Shown in pieces: positions 1,112 to 27,624 of a stretch of 33,689 bases of DNA. Numbering within the stretch: the first letter of the stretch is position 1; each line of letters begins with the position of its first letter. Origin of the DNA: a virus. Under the pieces are notes generated by a model. That model was not told the DNA's origin. It did not search any database and was given only the letters and a program-made list of their open reading frames with translations. The stretch covers positions 1 through 33,689 of IMG/VR virus record IMGVR_UViG_3300036835_000397; one strand, written 5' to 3'. The translations under genes were made by a program, and so were the position numbers.

Positions 1112-1145
1112 GGCAGTCCCAGAGAGCGGAGAAGGAGTGAACACC

Positions 1146-1355
1146 ATGAGCAAGGCGATGACGCTTCGGCTCACAGACGAGCAAGCGCGCGAGGTCGAGG
1201 CAGTCGCGCGCGCCGACCGCATCCCGGTGTCCGAGCTGATCCGGGACGCCATCGACTCGCACATCGCGCACCGTCGCGAGGACAACGAGTTCCGGGCGCG
1301 CCTCCGACAGATGATGGAGGAAGACCGCGCGATCCTCGACAGGCTCGCGCGATAG
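1146..1355 (+). CDS. Ribbon-helix-helix antitoxin
   Basis: 69 aa from ATG at 1146. GGAG at 1133-1136 gives good spacing to this ATG, while the upstream GTG at 1137 directly abuts the Shine-Dalgarno sequence and is less likely. The N-terminal strand KAMTLRLTDEQAREVEAVA followed by VSELIRDAIDSHI is a CopG/MetJ-type RHH fold that dimerises to bind DNA. The C-terminal helix (DNEFRARLRQMMEEDRAILDRL) is charged and would be the toxin-neutralising tail. It is the first gene of a two-gene operon; its stop overlaps the start of the Doc-like toxin. It is probably autoregulated through the repeats at 1063-1111. Confidence 0.85.
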   Translation: MSKAMTLRLTDEQAREVEAVARADRIPVSELIRDAIDSHIAHRREDNEFRARLRQMMEEDRAILDRLAR

Positions 1356-1747
1356 CCGACGAGGTCGCATACCTCGAACTCGGCGACTTCCTGCTCATCG
1401 CCGAGGCGGTGCTCGGGATCGCGGCCGAGGCCATCGCCCGCTTCGATCGCGTCGCGCTCGCCGAGTCGGCGCTCGCCGCACCAGCGGCGGGCTTCGCCGG
1501 GGTTGAGGCGTACCCGGACTTCGCGGACAAGGCGGCCGTCCTGTGCTCGCGGCTGATCCGGAACCATCCGCTCCCGGACGGCAACAAGCGAACCGGCTAC
1601 CTGTGCCTGCGCGAGTTCGTCGCGCGCAACGGTCACGCCTGGCACCCGGCCGGTGACGACGAGACCGCGGAGGTCATCGAGCGGGTCGCCGCCGGGACGA
1701 TGAGCGAACGAGCGCTGCGCGACTGGATCATCGACAGGCTCAGCTGA
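1352..1747 (+). CDS. doc: Doc-family toxin (Fic fold), near-cognate start
   Basis: The protein carries NHPLPDGNKRTG at about residues 71-82, the Doc form of the Fic motif (HxFxDxNKR), with catalytic His72 and phosphate-binding Asn78, Lys79 and Arg80. Known: Doc phosphorylates EF-Tu and halts translation; its antitoxin covers the active site. The N-terminus EVAYLELGDFLLIAEAVLGI aligns with the usual Doc start. This segment lies upstream of the first GTG (1409), so the real start should be near 1352, where the codon is ATA inside ATAG, overlapping the antitoxin stop by four bases. From there it is 131 aa, close to the usual 126 for Doc. The ATA start could keep toxin output low, or it could be a mutated ATG. 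Starting at GTG 1409 would remove 19 conserved residues. Confidence 0.8.
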   Translation: MADEVAYLELGDFLLIAEAVLGIAAEAIARFDRVALAESALAAPAAGFAGVEAYPDFADKAAVLCSRLIRNHPLPDGNKRTGYLCLREFVARNGHAWHPAGDDETAEVIERVAAGTMSERALRDWIIDRLS

Positions 1748-8634: not shown

Positions 8635-8828
8635 GTTGTCCTTCGTTCGGCGATGCGGATACAGCGCCGGCACGTCCGCTCGGGCCTGCTAGGGCCGTGC
8701 GTGCGCTCCACCCAGGGCAGGAGGCGGGCGCCGCAGAGCGCTCGGTCGACGGCCGGCGTCATCGAGTAGTGCACCACCGTGCCGGCCGCAGCCACCCGGT
8801 TCATGAACAGCACGCCGCGCACGTTCAT
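8631..8828 (-). CDS. 65-aa zinc-binding protein downstream of integrase
   Basis: ATG 8828 overlaps the integrase stop (ATGA). The sequence carries TVVHYSMTPAVDRALCGARL and ERTCRRCIRIAERR. One His (residue 20), Cys32 and the CRRC pair (53-56) form a likely zinc site seen in many short actinophage and actinobacterial proteins. The function is unknown. Its coupling to integrase means it is probably co-expressed during integration or excision. Confidence 0.7.
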   Translation of the reverse strand: MNVRGVLFMNRVAAAGTVVHYSMTPAVDRALCGARLLPWVERTHGPSRPERTCRRCIRIAERRTT

Positions 8829-9928
8829 CCGGCCCGCCTGAGCGGGGTGGGCACGGTCGGCCGCTTGGCGTAGGCGGCGCGGATGCGGTCGCGCGCGAGC
8901 GCCTCGTCGGCGTGCCCGTAGGTCGTCCTGATGAGCTCGCCGCCGTCCTGGTGGCCGAAGTGCAACGCGATGTCGCGCTCGTCGAGCTCGAGGACGTTCC
9001 ACGCGTACCAGCCGAAGTAGTGGCGCGTGGCGTCGTAGAGGCGCGTGTTGCCGATCCCGGCGGCAGCCCGGACGCGGTTCCAGTGCCAGGCGCGCGAGTT
9101 GGGCCGGTAGTGCGTGCCGCGCAGGGTGGTGAAGCAGAACTCGGACTCGCGCGGCAGTCTGAGCAGCCGCTCGCGCGCGGGATCGGTGAGCGCGATCGTC
9201 CTGATGTGCCAGTGCTTGGGCGGGGTGAACGTGTGCGTCTTGGCGTTCCACTGCTCGTCGACGAGGATCGTCCCGTTCTGGAAGTCGACCTTCGTCCAGC
9301 GGAGCGCGTCCAGCTCGCCGGGGCGCATCGCCTCGTGCACGGCGACGTCGAGGTAGCCGGCGAACGAGGGAGGCGCCAGCTCGTCGCCGAGCTGGATGAG
9401 GCGGATGATGTCGGCCTGCCCCGGCGGCATCGTCTTGTTGCGACGCTTGGCCGCAGCGGCCCTCCTGCGCGCGAGGCCGAGGTTGTCGAACGGGTTGACG
9501 GTGATGATGCGGCCGGCCTCGGCGGTCTTGGCGTCGTTGAAGAAGAGCCGGAGCTTGTCGATCGTGCCGAGGTTGCGGCCGCCCTTGATCCACTCGGCGA
9601 CCTGCTCGTCCCCGACGGCGCGCATGGGCAGGCCGCCGTACTCGGCGACGAACCGCACTGTGCGCTCGCGGTTGTGGATGTTGGTGCTCTCGGCCGGGCG
9701 GAGGTAGAGCGGGCTGGTCGTCCACTCGTTCCAGAACTCGAGGACGGTGAGACCGGCGCGCGCGTTCTCGGCGAGCAGCGTGGCCGCCTCGACCTCGGCC
9801 TCGAGCGCGGCCTCACGGGTCGGGTAGGTGGCTGGCCCGCCGATCACTGCCTGCGGGTTGAGGTGCTTGCGCGTGCGCGGGTGGCGGATGCGGGGACGCC
9901 ACTGGCCTGACGGAAGCTGGCTCGGCAT
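8825..9928 (-). CDS. int: Tyrosine recombinase (integrase)
   Basis: 367 aa from ATG 9928, with AAGGAG before it. The first 55 residues form a basic arm-binding-like domain (SGQWRPRIRHPRTRKHLNPQ). A SAM-like core-binding domain follows (about 60-160), then the catalytic domain: Arg202 in EAMRPGELDALRW, a Lys near 238, Asp299-Ala-Thr-Arg302 where HxxR is usual (the first His is replaced by Asp), His326 in LHFGHQDGG and nucleophile Tyr337 in TTYGHADE. Known: such enzymes join attP and attB and, with an excisionase, reverse the reaction. The excisionase-like gene ends five bases upstream, and the candidate attP is 0.8 kb downstream. Confidence 0.93.
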   Translation of the reverse strand: MPSQLPSGQWRPRIRHPRTRKHLNPQAVIGGPATYPTREAALEAEVEAATLLAENARAGLTVLEFWNEWTTSPLYLRPAESTNIHNRERTVRFVAEYGGLPMRAVGDEQVAEWIKGGRNLGTIDKLRLFFNDAKTAEAGRIITVNPFDNLGLARRRAAAAKRRNKTMPPGQADIIRLIQLGDELAPPSFAGYLDVAVHEAMRPGELDALRWTKVDFQNGTILVDEQWNAKTHTFTPPKHWHIRTIALTDPARERLLRLPRESEFCFTTLRGTHYRPNSRAWHWNRVRAAAGIGNTRLYDATRHYFGWYAWNVLELDERDIALHFGHQDGGELIRTTYGHADEALARDRIRAAYAKRPTVPTPLRRAG

Positions 9929-9933
9929 CGAAG

Positions 9934-10188
9934 CTATCTCCTTCGGTTGTCGGTCCCGGACGGCGTGGCTTCGCCGTCCCGGGGTTCGCGCATCGTAGAG
10001 CGCTCGCGCGCCCATGTCATCGCCTGCGAGGGGAGGAAGCGGCGGGTGCGGCTCATCCCCCACGTCTCCGACGGCATCCCGGCGGCGATGAACCGCTTGA
10101 TCGTCGACGTCGACACGCCCATGATCTCGGCGAGCTCCTCGCGGTCGACGTACCGCTCCGGCGGCTCGATCGTGCGCATGGGGCTCAT
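9934..10188 (-). CDS. xis: Excisionase-like MerR/AlpA HTH protein
   Basis: 84 aa from ATG 10188. RYVDREELAEIMGVSTSTIK followed by RFIAAGMPSETWGMSRTRRF and LPSQAMTWARER is the winged helix-turn-helix of AlpA/excisionase proteins, which select a site by reading the bend near attP or a promoter. It lies just upstream of int and overlaps the RHH gene before it by ATGA. Its stop codon overlaps the ribosome site region of int, so the two are coupled. It may act as recombination directionality factor, as a transcription regulator, or both. Confidence 0.75.
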   Translation of the reverse strand: MSPMRTIEPPERYVDREELAEIMGVSTSTIKRFIAAGMPSETWGMSRTRRFLPSQAMTWARERSTMREPRDGEATPSGTDNRRR

Positions 10189-10504: not shown

Positions 10505-10913
10505 ATGGCCGGGCTGGACAGGGACGCGATCAAGCTGCGGCTCGCCCAGGCCCGGTTGGAGGCGGGCCTGACCCAGGAGGAACTCGGCGACCTGATGGAG
10601 CCCTCCGTGCACCGGCGGACGGTTCAGGATTGGGAGAGCCTCAGGATCGCGACGATCCCCGTTCCGGCAGATGGCGAACATTGCGCGTGCCACCCACCGA
10701 TCCGTGGAGTGGCTACTGCATGGGGTCAACGAGCCCGCCGCGTCTACGGCACCACTTGCAGAGCAGGGCGAGCTGCTCGAGGGGATTCACGCGCTGATCG
10801 AGCGGATAGATCGCTTCGAAGCTCAGCAACAGCAGCTCTCAGACGAGCTTGCTGCGCTTCGAGCCGATCTAGACGAGAGCATTCGGCGTCGAGCGTCTGG
10901 CGAGCAAGCCTGA
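10505..10913 (+). pseudogene. XRE-family immunity repressor, frameshifted
   Basis: The frame from ATG 10505 encodes KLRLAQARLEAGLTQEELGD and VHRRTVQDWES, a Cro/CI-type helix-turn-helix. It then runs into unrelated sequence. The natural continuation, PFRQMANIARATHRSVEWLL-HG and a coiled coil (FEAQQQQLSDELAALRADLD) ending at 10913, is in the next frame (an in-frame ATG lies at 10671). Joining them needs one base skipped around 10633-10645, for example in AGCCTC. Explanations are a single-base error, a real inactivating insertion, or a programmed +1 shift. The protein would be the phage immunity repressor binding the operator boxes just upstream. No ribosome site precedes ATG 10505, so the message may be leaderless. 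Confidence 0.75.
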
Positions 10914-11112
10914 GCGGCGAGTGACGCCGCTCGACCACGACCCGGTTGCAGTGGTCACAGAGCTCCCACTCGACTTCCTCGCGGGGCGCCCACGGGTGGT
11001 TGGCCTTCACGATCCGGGTGGATTCCTGCCAGGGGCAGGCGCAGTCGAGGCCCAGCTGGCGGGCCGCCGTCGCTCGAAGCTCGGCGGCGTCTCCCGGCTG
11101 CGGTATCGCCAT
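10744..11112 (-). CDS. 122-aa zinc-site protein, antisense to the repressor end
   Basis: ATG 11112 is preceded by a strong GGAGGAGGGG ribosome site. The N-terminal two thirds look protein-like: MAIPQPGDAAELRATAARQL, LDCACPWQES, EEVEWELCDHCNRVVVERRH. The CAC and CDHC pairs suggest a zinc site. The last 56 residues are antisense to the repressor coiled coil and may merely reflect its codons. The gene may be real with a long antisense overlap, which could also influence repressor expression, or it may end earlier in a variant. Confidence 0.5.
   Translation of the reverse strand: MAIPQPGDAAELRATAARQLGLDCACPWQESTRIVKANHPWAPREEVEWELCDHCNRVVVERRHSPLRLARQTLDAECSRLDRLEAQQARLRAAVAELRSDLSARSARESPRAARPALQVVP
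10912..10932 (+). terminator. Hairpin after the repressor
   Basis: GAGCGGCG-AGTGA-CGCCGCTC is a perfect 8-bp stem at the repressor stop codon. No T-tract follows. It may end the repressor transcript, although the antisense gene also reads through this sequence. Confidence 0.45.
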
Positions 11113-11211: not shown

Positions 11212-11343
11212 GTAACAATTCACCGTCACCGACCCCCTGCTGCCGCGCACAAGGCTGAGGAGGAGGGAGTGAGCCTCAACCAGTACGTTGCGACCACGCT
11301 CGCGGGCGCGGTCGGCTGGCAGCGACGCCGAGAGCTCGTCTAG
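11212..11343 (+). pseudogene. Remnant of a HicB/RHH-type antitoxin
   Basis: The last 43 codons before TAG 11343 read HKAEEEGVSLNQYVATTLAG followed by AVGW, the C-terminal signature of HicB-like and Arc-like proteins (usually LH..LA..A..EGVSLNQYV). Upstream sequence in this frame does not show the expected strand. A GTG within the motif (11269) follows GGAGGAGGGA and could yield only 24 residues. It is probably a decayed fragment, though a very short peptide cannot be excluded. Confidence 0.45.
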
Positions 11344-11398: not shown

Positions 11399-11427
11399 TT
11401 GACGCGCGCTATAACAGGTGCTAGCGT
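11399..11427 (+). promoter_or_regulatory. Promoter of the ParB-like operon
   Basis: TTGACG (11399-11404), a 17-bp spacer and TAGCGT (11422-11427) make a plausible vegetative promoter. A second -35-like TTGACA lies at 11376-11381. This is the most promoter-like stretch in the window and lies about 75 bp before the parB-like start. Confidence 0.55.
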
Positions 11428-11441
11428 TCGCGCACTGACTA

Positions 11442-11484
11442 GCGGTGGCGGCCTACCCCACTGGAAGGAGACAGCCGCCACCGC
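11442..11484 (+). promoter_or_regulatory. Strong 5' UTR hairpin
   Basis: GCGGTGGCGGC (11442-11452) and GCCGCCACCGC (11474-11484) are perfect 11-bp inverted repeats around a 21-nt loop that contains GGAAGGAG. The true ribosome site AAGGAGGG follows within ten bases. It could be a translational control hairpin, an attenuator, or a DNA site bound by the ParB-like proteins encoded just downstream. Confidence 0.55.
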
Positions 11485-11502
11485 ACCAAGGAGGGTAGCC
11501 TC

Positions 11503-12483
11503 ATGGCCCCAGCACGTGACAGCGTCAAGCACGACGCCATCACCCGTGTGCTCGTCGGGATCCTCGACGAGTACGACCTCGACTACACCGAGGATCCCCA
11601 GTACGTCCTCGCGAACCTGCGCCGCAGCCAGGTCCGTGACGCCCGGAACGTTGCACCGGCCGAGACAGTTCAGTGGCTCCGCGCGAAGCTGCAGGCTGGC
11701 GACCCGCTCCCGGCGATCGTCTCGACCGCCGACGGCGAGATCGTGGACGGGAACACCCGCGCCGCCGCCTACCAGAAGGAGAAGCGGCAGAACGGGTACG
11801 TGATCACGACCCGCAAGACGGCCGAGCAGATCGGGCCGGCGCTGATGAAGATCCTCGGCCAGCGGATGAACGACCACGGCAAGCGGCTCTCGCGGGCCGA
11901 GACCGAGGCGAGCATCCGCGTCCTCATCACCGAGGGTGCGACGACGGAGCGGATCATGCAGCACCTCTCCGTTCCGCAGTCCCGCGTGCACGAGCTCCGC
12001 GCGATCATGAAGGCCGAGTCGAAGATGGCCGAGCTCGGCCTCGGCAGGAACGGGTTCAAGACCGCGCACATGAAGGCGCTCGGCCGGATCGACCTGCTGG
12101 CGAAGCCGTTCGCCGAGCTCGTGAAGCTCAGCCACGACGCCGGGCTCAGCTCGGGTGACCTCACGAACCTGGCCAAGCGGGTGAAGGCGGAGAACTCCGA
12201 GGAGGCGCAGCTCCAGGCGCTCGCCAGCGAGCGGAACGCGCTCTCCGACCAGATCCGGCAGCACAAGCTGATGGGGAACGGGAAGCCGCCGGCCGCCCGC
12301 CGCGCGAAGCAGTCGCTCAGCCAGTTCCTGTCCGTCACCACCGCTCCCGAGACGGTCGTCGAGCGGGCTCCGGAGCGGATGGAGGAGCAGCTCAGCGTGC
12401 TGCGCCAGTCCAGGCAGCGGCTCGAGGCGCTGATCGAGGCTCAGGAGGCCGCCGCCGCCGAGGCCGGCGTGACGCTCCTGTGA
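11503..12483 (+). CDS. ParB-like protein 1
   Basis: 326 aa from ATG 11503, with AAGGAGGG upstream. A ParB/Srx-type core contains LPAIVSTADGEIVDGNTRAA, the counterpart of the GERR-type nucleotide-binding motif. A helical DNA-binding middle follows (SRAETEASIRVLITEGATTE, HLSVPQSRVHELRAIM), then a C-terminal helical region likely to dimerise (ERMEEQLSVLRQSRQRLEAL). Known: ParB proteins are CTPase clamps that load at parS, and many phages carry ParB-like proteins of uncertain role. No ParA partner is visible. It is the first gene of a three-gene operon on the opposite strand from the late genes, joined to the next by a GTGA overlap. It could act in prophage maintenance, gene regulation or DNA protection. 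Confidence 0.75.
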   Translation: MAPARDSVKHDAITRVLVGILDEYDLDYTEDPQYVLANLRRSQVRDARNVAPAETVQWLRAKLQAGDPLPAIVSTADGEIVDGNTRAAAYQKEKRQNGYVITTRKTAEQIGPALMKILGQRMNDHGKRLSRAETEASIRVLITEGATTERIMQHLSVPQSRVHELRAIMKAESKMAELGLGRNGFKTAHMKALGRIDLLAKPFAELVKLSHDAGLSSGDLTNLAKRVKAENSEEAQLQALASERNALSDQIRQHKLMGNGKPPAARRAKQSLSQFLSVTTAPETVVERAPERMEEQLSVLRQSRQRLEALIEAQEAAAAEAGVTLL

Positions 12484-13868
12484 GCCGCGACCTTCTCGCT
12501 CAGTCGCTCAGGGACTTCTCGAGCGACGCCTGGTGGGCGATCTGCGACTCGTTCGTGGATGGGGACGCTTCGGCGTCCCCATCCGAGCTCGCAGCCCGCG
12601 TCCGCCAGCGGGTCCGTAAGGGCGACCTGCTCCGCGCCTCCGCCAGCTACGGCGACGACCGGGGCGAGGACGAGGGAGCCCGCCTGCTCACCGAGAAGAT
12701 CCTGCGGGCGCTCGCCGACCAGCACGTCATCGAGCCGGACGGCGACAACTGGCGGGTCACCCGCGCCTACCTCGAGCTCCACGACCTCGCCGGTGGCGGC
12801 ATCCGGTTCGCCTACAACATCGACGGGAGCTGGACGACCTACGACGCGCTCCCGCGCGAAGCCCGCGAGGCTCGCCGGCAGGCGGACACCGACCGGCTGA
12901 ATATGTCCGCTGCGATCGCGAACGCCGCCAACTACCGGCGGCCGGTCCAGACCGGCGAGGAGCGCCCCCCCAGGTATGCGACCGCCCGGCAGGCCGCCTA
13001 CGACCTGTACACATCGCTGCGCGAGTACGGATACCTCGACGCGTTCCCCGTCACTCTCGACCGGGACGGCCGAGTCGTGTCCGGCAACCACCGGATGCGG
13101 TTCGCGGAGCTCGCCCGCGCCGATCTCGCAGCCGAGCTCGCCGACGTGCAGACGAACGGGAGCGACCCGATCGTGGTCGCCGATCTCGAGCGGCGGATCG
13201 CCAGCCTCGACCGGGACCGGATCCTCAGCCGCGCGGTCGTCGTGACCAACGACGCCGACGAGATCCGGGTCACGACCGCGAGCGAGGTTCAGATCCCCTG
13301 GACAGCTCACGAACGCCAGCAGCTCGCCAAGCGGCTCCTCATCGAGGACGGCCTGTCCGTCGCCGAGGTCGCCGAGCGGCTCCGGGTGAGCGAGCAGACA
13401 GTCCGCGAGTGGACGCTGGAGGAACGCGTCGACGTCAAGCTGATCCAGCAGGCCGAAGCCAGGCGACTCCTCGACGCCGGCTGGTCACAACGGCGGGTAG
13501 CAAAGCACCTCGGAGTGACCGAAGGGGCGGTCCGGCATTGGGTGCGTAATTCTGCGGGTACCCGCGAAATTACGCAGATAACGGAGGAGCATCATTCCAC
13601 GCCGGATTCCGTCGAGGATTCCACGGTGGAAATGACACCGTCGGCGGTGAAGCAGCGGGTCGCGGAGCGGAACAGGCAGGCCCAGGAGGTCGACCCGGAC
13701 ACGGGGCTCCACTACCGCGCCGGCGGGATGCGACCCTCCCGCACCCAGGCGAGCACCCGAGACGAGGAGCTCCTGCTCGAGTACGTCGCCCAGCTCGAGC
13801 AGGAGAACACGGTGCTCCGAGCTCGGGTCTCCCAGCTCGAGCGAGAGAACGCCGAGCTCAGACGGTGA
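12480..13868 (+). CDS. ParB-like protein 2 with HTH domains and leucine-zipper tail
   Basis: 462 aa from GTG 12480. The order is: an N-terminal helical/winged domain (about 1-110), a ParB-like core with DGRVVSGNHRMRFAELA near residue 200, one helix-turn-helix LSVAEVAERLRVSEQTVREW near 300, a second GWSQRRVAKHLGVTEGAVRH near 340, a linker, and a C-terminal coiled coil LLLEYVAQLEQENTVLRARV continuing SQLERENAEL. The core plus two sequence-reading HTH units suggests binding at specific sites and spreading or bridging. It overlaps ParB-like protein 1 and the coiled-coil gene by four bases each, so the three should be made together. It is much larger and differently built than a plasmid ParB. Confidence 0.78.
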   Translation: MSRDLLAQSLRDFSSDAWWAICDSFVDGDASASPSELAARVRQRVRKGDLLRASASYGDDRGEDEGARLLTEKILRALADQHVIEPDGDNWRVTRAYLELHDLAGGGIRFAYNIDGSWTTYDALPREAREARRQADTDRLNMSAAIANAANYRRPVQTGEERPPRYATARQAAYDLYTSLREYGYLDAFPVTLDRDGRVVSGNHRMRFAELARADLAAELADVQTNGSDPIVVADLERRIASLDRDRILSRAVVVTNDADEIRVTTASEVQIPWTAHERQQLAKRLLIEDGLSVAEVAERLRVSEQTVREWTLEERVDVKLIQQAEARRLLDAGWSQRRVAKHLGVTEGAVRHWVRNSAGTREITQITEEHHSTPDSVEDSTVEMTPSAVKQRVAERNRQAQEVDPDTGLHYRAGGMRPSRTQASTRDEELLLEYVAQLEQENTVLRARVSQLERENAELRR

Positions 13869-14077
13869 CAACGGGTCTGACTGATCAGGTGGCAGATCTC
13901 GAGGCTCGCGTCGAAGCGCTCGAGGAGCGGCTGGCGCGACAGGAGGCGGCAGCGGCCGAGGCGATCGCGGCGCTCGCCGCGGCGGCGGCGAGCCTCGAGG
14001 AGGCCGAGGACGCGCTCGCGGTCGTGCACCGCGCGCTGCTCACGTTGTACGCGGCGAAGAGCCCGTCCCTCTTCTAG
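13865..14077 (+). CDS. 70-aa coiled-coil protein
   Basis: GTG 13865, overlapping the ParB-like protein 2 stop (GTGA). VADLEARVEALEERLARQEA starts a nearly continuous heptad pattern, which continues through an Ala-rich section to ALLTLYAAKSPSLF. It probably forms a dimer and could pair with the leucine-zipper tail of ParB-like protein 2. No catalytic motif. It is the last gene of the operon, facing the hairpin at 14081. Confidence 0.7.
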   Translation: MTTGLTDQVADLEARVEALEERLARQEAAAAEAIAALAAAAASLEEAEDALAVVHRALLTLYAAKSPSLF

Positions 14078-15763: not shown

Positions 15764-16521
15764 GAGAGCTTCCCTGCGAGCCGCTTCGCGGTCTCGGCGA
15801 GCACGTGCGCGTCGCCGAGCATCTTCTCGCGCAACTCCCGCCGCGTAGGCGCCGGCGGCGGCGGCTCGGCACGGCCGATCACCTCGCCGCCCCAGCACGT
15901 CCAGTCGGCCGGGCTCATCGTCTCGGCCGCCCACACGCAGCAGGCGTCGACGCCGTACACGTCGCGGTAGCTCGCGAGCGGGTAGCCGTAGTAGGCGCCC
16001 GGCGTGCAGACCACGTACTCGTAGCCGCGCCGGTCGGCCTCGCCGCACATGACGTCAGGGGTCGCGCCGGGGTTCTCCTGCACGTAGCTTTCGGGCAGGC
16101 ACGACGCGCCGAGCTCCAACAGAGCGGGGTCGAGTGTTGGATCGACGCGCGACGGGCCAAGGTCAGTTACAAGCGCGAGCGTGATCGACGGGGCGGCGGC
16201 CCGGCAGCCGCGCAGCGCGGCAAGCGCTTTTTGGCCGCGGTCGCGCGCGACCTCGTCGCTGTCGCCGGCCTGCTCGGCCTGGCAGATGTAGAACGACGGC
16301 CCGAAGCTGGCGGCGATCGCGCCGTGGTCTGCCTCCGGCCAGGCGTCCCAGAGGCCCCACATCATTCCCTGTGCGTCGCACGCGGTCTTGAAGTCGAGGC
16401 CTCGCTCGCGGCCGTACTGGACGGGCAGCCACCCGTAGCCCGACTCGAGCGCCTGGCGGACGAGCGCGTCGGGCTCGCGGTGGCCGATCTCGTAGTCGCC
16501 GGTGTCGGCGCCCCAGGTTAC
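15760..16521 (-). CDS. Tail-associated protein, possibly TIM-barrel hydrolase-like
   Basis: 253 aa if read from GTA 16521. VTWGADTGDYEIGHREPDAL, VRQALESGYGWLPVQYG and MMWGLWDAWPEADHGAIAAS alternate strands and helices as in a TIM barrel. EQAGDSDEVARDRGQKALAA and SITLALVTDLGP follow, then a cysteine-bearing region, a PPPPAPTRRELREKML linker and a helix. I suspect a glycosidase-like fold, but no catalytic pair is certain. There is no ATG, GTG or TTG near the start. GTA lies in GTAA, overlapping the stop of the 74-aa gene by four bases; the nearest ATG (16704) would add 61 residues with an implausible Arg-rich sequence. The protein may act on host surface glycans. Confidence 0.65.
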   Translation of the reverse strand, partial: VTWGADTGDYEIGHREPDALVRQALESGYGWLPVQYGRERGLDFKTACDAQGMMWGLWDAWPEADHGAIAASFGPSFYICQAEQAGDSDEVARDRGQKALAALRGCRAAAPSITLALVTDLGPSRVDPTLDPALLELGASCLPESYVQENPGATPDVMCGEADRRGYEYVVCTPGAYYGYPLASYRDVYGVDACCVWAAETMSPADWTCWGGEVIGRAEPPPPAPTRRELREKMLGDAHVLAETAKRLAGKLS

Positions 16522-26751: not shown

Positions 26752-27624
26752 TCATGCGGTCCAGTCGGCGAGCTTGAACGGCGAAATCGCCGTCCCCTTG
26801 GCGTTGAGCGGCGTCCCGACCGCGACCCCGACCCGCATGTAGCACTTCATCCCGGTCAGGTTGTCCTGGAACATGTTCGCGATGATGGCGCCGGTGTTGT
26901 CCTGCAGGATCGCCTCGGTCGACACGTCGAACGTGATGTCCTCGCGAACACCGACGAGCAGGTACTCCCAGGCGCCGACCAGCGCGTCGCCCTTCGTCGA
27001 GTCCCAGGCGGAGGTGACCGCGACCGGCCACCCGTACAGGTTGAGCGGCGCCGCCTGATCGGGTGATGCCATGACGGCGCCCCAGGCGGCGCGCAGCGCG
27101 GCGTAGACGTTGGGGCCGCCGGCGATCCCGTCCACGATCGCGCCGGACGCCTCGACCGCGGCAGCGGCCTTGTCGATCGCCTCGGTGGCGGTGGCGCCGG
27201 TGAGCGCCGCGCCGGCGATCGCGGCCAGCCCGCCGGTCGGGAACGAGGCGGGAGCCCCAGTGCCGAACAGCACCGCGTCGTCGAGCGCCTTGGCGATCGC
27301 CGACGCCATCGCCGGCTTGACGTTGTCCCACAGCGGAGCGCCGGCGTCGTCGATGAACGCGGTCGGGACCGCGAGCACGCACGCGATCTCCTCGGCGGTG
27401 ATGTTGAGCGCCGACCACTCGATCTTGGTGGCCGGCTTACGGCCCCCGTAGGCGGGGTTCACGAACCCGGCAACCGGCATGAACGAGACGACCGGGACCG
27501 ACTCAAGCCCCGACGCCATCACCTGCCGGTTGCCGAGCCGCAACGTGATCGACTCCAGGAACGCGGCCTCGAGCACCGCCTGCGAGATGGTGCGAGGGAC
27601 GAGACTTGCGTAGTTCGTAGCCAC
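26752..27624 (-). CDS. HK97-fold major capsid protein
   Basis: 290 aa. LVPRTISQAVLEAAFLESIT, PVAGFVNPAYGGRKPATKIE, NITAEEIACVLAVPTAFIDD and ALDDAVLFGTGAPASFPTGG give the HK97 N-arm exit, E-loop, long helix and A-domain. The C-terminal strands DITFDVSTEAILQDNTGAII and MKCYMRVGVAVGTPLNAKGT complete it. There is no long N-terminal delta domain, so assembly should depend on the separate scaffold encoded just upstream. GAGG-type ribosome sites are visible before ATG 27624. Confidence 0.9.
   Translation of the reverse strand: MATNYASLVPRTISQAVLEAAFLESITLRLGNRQVMASGLESVPVVSFMPVAGFVNPAYGGRKPATKIEWSALNITAEEIACVLAVPTAFIDDAGAPLWDNVKPAMASAIAKALDDAVLFGTGAPASFPTGGLAAIAGAALTGATATEAIDKAAAAVEASGAIVDGIAGGPNVYAALRAAWGAVMASPDQAAPLNLYGWPVAVTSAWDSTKGDALVGAWEYLLVGVREDITFDVSTEAILQDNTGAIIANMFQDNLTGMKCYMRVGVAVGTPLNAKGTAISPFKLADWTA

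What the first reader, a model, noticed from the sequence alone, without database searches (positions are those of the whole stretch)
11399..14077. Independent operon of two ParB-like proteins plus a coiled-coil protein, with no ParA
Two differently built ParB-like proteins (one with a ParB/Srx core, one with the core, two HTH units and a leucine zipper) and a coiled-coil partner are coupled by GTGA overlaps on the strand opposite to the late and early operons. They have their own promoter and an 11-bp perfect hairpin in the leader. Plasmid-type partition would need a ParA. The set could be a lysogen-expressed clamp/bridging complex, a transcriptional silencer, or a defence module. This is the best candidate for an undescribed system here.
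Basis: partly seen in the sequence, partly recalled or inferred. Interest (0 to 1): 0.68.

Follow-up and report, generated by a model that had tools for sequence, protein, structure and literature searches.

The report
Accessory phage pair of ParB-like proteins
A temperate phage, probably of an actinobacterium, carries a self-contained two-gene unit encoding two very different relatives of the DNA-clamp protein ParB, shared with one otherwise unrelated phage and lacking the motor protein used for DNA partition, so it is more likely a gene-control or protection module of the dormant phage than a DNA-segregation system.

Summary
P1 (326 aa), P2 (462 aa) and P3 (70 aa) are real genes coupled by GTGA overlaps on the strand opposite the structural genes, with a promoter-like site and an 11-bp leader hairpin. 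P1 and P2 are distant members of the ParB/Srx (ParB-CTPase) fold: Pfam's ParB model misses both, but PHROG ParB profiles find both, in both phages that carry them, and both keep the GxxR nucleotide-binding motif. Only one other record (G001, 28.3 kb) has them. There the P1-P2 order, GTGA coupling, promoter geometry and hairpin (two compensated pair changes) are conserved, although the rest of the genome shares almost no DNA similarity. P3 and the P2 C-terminal zipper are absent there, so the conserved unit is P1-P2. Neither phage has a ParA match; both have tyrosine integrases and XRE repressors. A relative sharing the window's xis-int region runs from lysin to integrase without P1/P2, so the pair is an optional insert. 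Best reading: a lysogen-expressed accessory ("moron") encoding two co-translated, NTP-gated DNA-binding regulators acting together on transcription, KorB-like in working but not KorB. ParB fold and mosaic nature are well supported; function is inferred. New variant of a known kind.

The parts
11399..11427 (+). promoter-like site TTGACG-17-TAGCGT; TSS expected about 11434
   Evidence: sequence; same geometry in G001 (TTGACA-17-TACTGT, 14 nt to hairpin); not flagged by the strict consensus scan
11442..11484 (+). 5' leader inverted repeat/hairpin, 11 bp stem, 21-nt loop, just before the ribosome-binding site
   Evidence: two compensated stem changes in G001
11485..11502 (+). Shine-Dalgarno region (AAGGAGG) of P1; may pair with the hairpin loop (CTACCC:GGGTAG)
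   Evidence: suggestive only
11503..12483 (+). P1, 326 aa: ParB-like core (GNTR motif, R86) + HTH + helical/coiled C-terminus
12480..13868 (+). P2, 462 aa: winged-helix-like N-domain, ParB-like core (GNHR motif, R205), two HTH units, C-terminal coiled coil
12557..12584 (+). perfect 12-bp stem with cUUCGg tetraloop inside the P2 5' coding region; role unknown
13865..14077 (+). P3, 70 aa predicted coiled coil; absent in the other carrier

Best explanation
P1-P2 is an accessory, self-contained transcription unit ('moron') of temperate phages that encodes two co-translated proteins of the ParB/Srx (ParB-CTPase) fold. P1 (ParB core plus HTH) and P2 (winged helix, ParB core, two HTHs) probably work together as nucleotide-gated DNA-binding regulators. 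They would load at specific sites and slide or assemble on DNA to silence or modulate transcription in the lysogen (prophage, host or incoming phage genes), much as KorB/KorA or VirB do. The leader inverted repeat probably sets expression, either as an mRNA hairpin next to the ribosome-binding site or as an operator. Shown: gene structure, ParB relationship, P1-P2 co-occurrence, conserved leader, optional presence, absence of ParA. Inferred: complex formation, NTP binding, DNA target, transcriptional role, expression in the lysogen.
For: phrog_1033 (ParB-like) matches P2 at E=4.7e-7. In the six-frame searches all six phrog_1033 matches in the two genomes lie in P1 or P2 (E 4.4e-6 to 1e-2). With the HTHs removed, the only named families hit by the cores are ParB-like ones (phrog_1033, phrog_620) and phrog_498, annotated DNA methyltransferase and hit at its N-terminal part. 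Both keep GxxR, whose Arg-to-Ala change abolishes NTP binding in tested family members (PMC12704722). HTH units in P2 are strong. P1-P2 order, GTGA coupling, promoter and hairpin are conserved in G001, which otherwise shares almost no DNA similarity. Nearby genes are lysogeny genes: tyrosine integrase, excisionase-like, XRE. P1/P2 are absent from G005/G006, where lysin-XRE-xis-int is contiguous.
Against: No operator or parS-like repeat was found in both genomes. AlphaFold2 models are poor (pLDDT 47 and 56) and the fold searches are inconclusive, with Spo0J recurring only weakly. 17 of 28 tested family members bound no NTP. Only two carriers are known. An XRE repressor is already present, so a main repressor is not needed.
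Confidence: 0.4

Rival explanations
1. Anti-phage or superinfection-exclusion module: the lysogen-expressed pair recognises and silences or blocks incoming phage DNA.
For: Moron-like organisation: own promoter, opposite strand, mosaic presence. Another apparently lysogen-type module, RHH plus Fic/Doc, lies on the same strand at 1137-1747.
Against: PADLOC gives no system match, only a generic HTH (mad1) and coiled-coil noise. No nuclease or toxin-like domain was found in P1-P3.
Confidence: 0.17
2. Regulator of the phage's own lytic/lysogenic programme or replication, without cooperative ParB-type clamping: two separate transcription factors that merely share an operon.
For: P2 carries strong HTH matches including phage regulators. 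The module is next to the lysogeny genes in both carriers.
Against: Both ParB-like cores keep GxxR and are constrained, and both genes are kept together across otherwise dissimilar phages.
Confidence: 0.25
3. ParB-type partition or plasmid maintenance without an own ParA, possibly using host ParA.
For: The nearest family (phrog_1033) is annotated 'ParB-like partition protein'.
Against: No ParA-family match in either carrier while all 14 control genomes ring. Both carriers have tyrosine integrases. No parS-like repeat. No ParA-binding motif (L/F/I)G(K/R)G(L/F/I) in P1 or P2 (sequence). The module is dispensable.
Confidence: 0.06
4. The ParB fold is a scaffold or small-molecule sensor here (as in PadC/SerK/Srx-type uses) with no DNA clamp.
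For: The divergent branch of the fold includes non-clamp uses (PMC12704722).
Against: HTH motifs in P2 and an HTH predicted after the P1 core argue for DNA binding.
Confidence: 0.12

Closest known systems
Orphan ParB-like proteins of phages and prophages (ParB-CTPase fold survey, PMC12704722)
   Same: ParB/Srx-type core with GxxR P motif, fused to DNA-binding domains, on a mobile element, no ParA
   Different: P1 and P2 fall below PF02195, the model that survey used, and occur as a tandem pair of two differently built members with a conserved leader
KorB (with KorA) of plasmid RK2 (PMC11790492)
   Same: ParB core plus HTH; partner DNA-binding protein; long-range transcriptional silencing by CTP clamp is the proposed analogy
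   Different: No detectable KorB sequence match, partner is itself a ParB-fold protein, no operator found, phage not plasmid
VirB of Shigella (PMC10770331)
   Same: ParB-type fold reused for transcription rather than segregation
   Different: Antisilencer acting alone; no family-level sequence relation shown here
phrog_1033 'ParB-like partition protein'
   Same: Best profile match to both P1 and P2 apart from HTH families
   Different: Remote match; function of that family is annotation only

Membership tests
ParB/Srx (ParB-CTPase) fold | profile similarity of the core | tested here: met
   phrog_1033/phrog_620 hits for both proteins in both phages; PF02195 not reached
ParB/Srx (ParB-CTPase) fold | P motif GxxR in box II | tested here: met
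   P1 D82-GNTR86 and P2 S201-GNHR205, invariant in G001
ParB/Srx (ParB-CTPase) fold | three-dimensional fold | tested here: inconclusive
   Low-confidence models; strand/helix order as expected; Spo0J among weak hits
ParB/Srx (ParB-CTPase) fold | NTP binding and hydrolysis | not testable with these tools
   needs DRaCALA/ITC and CTPase assay
ParABS partition system | ParA ATPase | tested here: not met
   PF13614 absent from G000 and G001, 14/14 controls positive; fragments possible
ParABS partition system | parS repeats | tested here: not met
   no shared or repeated parS-like palindrome
ParABS partition system | ParA-binding motif (L/F/I)G(K/R)G(L/F/I) | tested here: not met
   absent from P1 and P2 sequences, read by eye
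KorAB-type silencing system | operator (OB-like) sites and KorA partner | tested here: not met
   no repeated operator found; partner is a ParB-like protein, not KorA
Known anti-phage defence system | match to PADLOC system genes | tested here: not met
   only generic HTH/coiled-coil matches
Prophage moron | own promoter, opposite strand, optional presence among relatives | tested here: met
   expression in the lysogen not tested

The most novel reading that the evidence does not exclude
P1 and P2 form a heteromeric, NTP-gated ParB-ParB clamp that loads and spreads on prophage or foreign DNA to silence it, with translation of P1 controlled by the leader hairpin, possibly through an SD-pairing pseudoknot: a two-component ParB silencing machine of temperate phages.
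Probability: 0.17. Interest if true: 0.72.

Novelty: new variant of a known kind. Interest (0 to 1): 0.42.

Why it matters
Orphan ParB-like proteins on mobile elements are abundant, but very few have a known job. A compact, conserved pair of divergent members in one operon, with an optional-presence comparison (G005/G006) and clear mutation targets (R86, R205), is a tractable place to ask whether phages use ParB clamps for gene silencing or DNA surveillance instead of segregation.

Tried and rejected
Partition system: rejected as main reading (no ParA, no parS, integrases present). Conserved three-gene set: rejected, P3 absent in G001. Defence-system membership: no PADLOC match. Relatives in isolated phages, plasmids and GTDB genomes: none. 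Motif scans of IMG/VR gave only G001 and one chance match, L010. AlphaFold2 with two-sequence alignments gave poor models; Foldseek inconclusive. PDB sequence searches gave only weak Spo0J lines. hhalign of P1 versus P2 aligned only the HTH. Genome relatives cannot be drawn for a virus record. Rfam: no credible match.

Full report
WHAT IS THERE. The window is a 33.7-kb IMG/VR virus record, a temperate siphovirus: tape measure, portal and terminase; portal relatives are almost all actinobacteriophages; a tyrosine integrase lies at 8825-10063. Structural and early genes run on the minus strand. On the plus strand lie P1 (11503-12483), P2 (12480-13868) and P3 (13865-14077), joined by GTGA overlaps. 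Codon-position GC supports all three as genes.

WHAT THE PROTEINS ARE. Pfam finds no ParB domain in either protein, even at loose thresholds; only the P2 HTH units reach Pfam cut-offs. PHROG profiles do find ParB. phrog_1033 (ParB-like) matches P2 at 4.7e-7, although this alignment includes the first HTH. With the HTHs cut off P2, and with a P1 piece that keeps its predicted HTH, the P1 piece hits phrog_1033 (1.7e-4 for the G001 copy, 3.7e-3 for the window copy) and the P2 core hits phrog_620, another ParB-like family (2.7e-3 window, 0.056 G001). In six-frame searches of both genomes all phrog_1033 matches fall in P1 or P2. Both keep GxxR: GNTR ending at R86 in P1, GNHR ending at R205 in P2, invariant between the two phages. 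In the PNAS 2025 survey this arginine is needed for NTP binding (PMC12704722). P1 also fits box I (SQVR) and box III (N123, LSxAE) by eye, from general knowledge of ParB; box III of P2 is unclear. Structure models are poor, so the fold rests on profiles and motifs. Secondary structure suggests an N-terminal winged helix in P2.

CO-OCCURRENCE. Among 2.9 million viral contigs, the close-relative and motif scans found one other carrier, G001 (IMGVR_UViG_3300045141_000232, 28.3 kb). It has P1 at 81% identity, and P2 cut by the contig ends, the two parts lying at opposite ends as expected of a circularly permuted genome. Apart from P1-P2 and their leader, the only DNA match between the genomes is one marginal 49-nt stretch. 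P2 there ends without a zipper and is followed by a terminator-like repeat and an integrase, with no P3. So P1-P2 is the unit and P3 is an addition. dN/dS is 0.27 (P1) and 0.48 (P2). These scans reach close relatives only; more distant pairs may exist unseen.

LEADER. The promoter-like TTGACR-17-TAnnGT and a 14-nt gap to an 11-bp hairpin are identical in layout in both phages. The stem differs at four positions, forming two compensated pairs (chance about 8e-4 under a simple model), while the loop differs at 8 of 21. The symmetry is therefore selected, as an RNA hairpin or as a dyad operator; two sequences cannot separate these. In each phage the loop can pair with the Shine-Dalgarno region (6 and 7 nt, permutation p 0.02 and 0.009). 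This was seen after the fact, uses different registers, and the window version leaves no room for a pseudoknot loop, so it is only a lead.

MOBILITY. G005 and G006 share the window's xis-int segment (67% protein identity in int) but run lysin - XRE - xis - int with no P1/P2. G002, whose tail and lysis genes are mostly 76-83% identical in DNA to the window's (70% in part of the tape measure), also shows none, although a gap between its contig ends cannot be excluded. The A1/A2 models were not run on a known positive in the same call, but the single-sequence searches find G000 and G001. P1-P2 is thus an optional insert near the lysogeny region.

PARTITION. No AAA_31/ParA match in either carrier while all 14 control genomes ring, no parS-like repeats, no ParA-binding motif, and an integrase in both. 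Partition is unlikely.

MECHANISM. The simplest reading is a lysogen-expressed pair of ParB-fold, HTH-bearing regulators acting together on DNA, analogous to KorB/KorA silencing (PMC11790492) or VirB (PMC10770331). Expression in lysogens, complex formation, NTP binding and targets are not shown. Defence or superinfection exclusion is the main functional rival.

NOVELTY. Orphan ParB-like proteins in phages are known (PMC12704722). I found no description of a tandem pair with two differently built cores in the held library, which omits most subscription papers. I rate this a new variant of a known kind.

Noticed in passing
window 10505-10913 (+): XRE-type repressor gene appears frameshifted near 10650-10670: the HTH in one frame continues as the C-terminal part in the next. 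Assembly error or a real break.
   Followed up: partly
window 12557-12584: Perfect 12-bp stem with a UUCG tetraloop inside the P2 coding start; expected 0.18 per window. The DNA alignment to G001 breaks there.
   Followed up: partly
window 1137-1747 (+): Ribbon-helix-helix protein followed by a Fic/Doc-family protein (PF02661 E=1.6e-11): a likely toxin-antitoxin pair, on the same strand as P1-P3.
   Followed up: partly
window 11453-11498 and G001 27079-27120: Loop of the P1 leader hairpin is complementary to the Shine-Dalgarno region in both phages (6 and 7 nt), in different registers; possible pseudoknot.
   Followed up: partly
window 11215-11343 (+): Frame ending in EEEGVSLNQYVATTLAGAVGW looks by eye like the C-terminal remnant of a HicB-type antitoxin, just upstream of the P1 promoter.
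   Followed up: no
window 10744-11112 (-): Small protein with CxC and CxxC cysteine pairs (possible zinc site) overlapping the XRE gene on the other strand.
   Followed up: no
G001 16465-16494 (L006:2465-2494): 30-bp perfect palindrome GGTCAGGGTGGTGGCGCCACCACCCTGACC in the structural-gene region of the other carrier.
   Followed up: no
G001 contig ends: The contig is cut inside the P2 gene, so the record appears circularly permuted and nearly complete, although its ends carry no repeat of 10-199 bases.
   Followed up: yes
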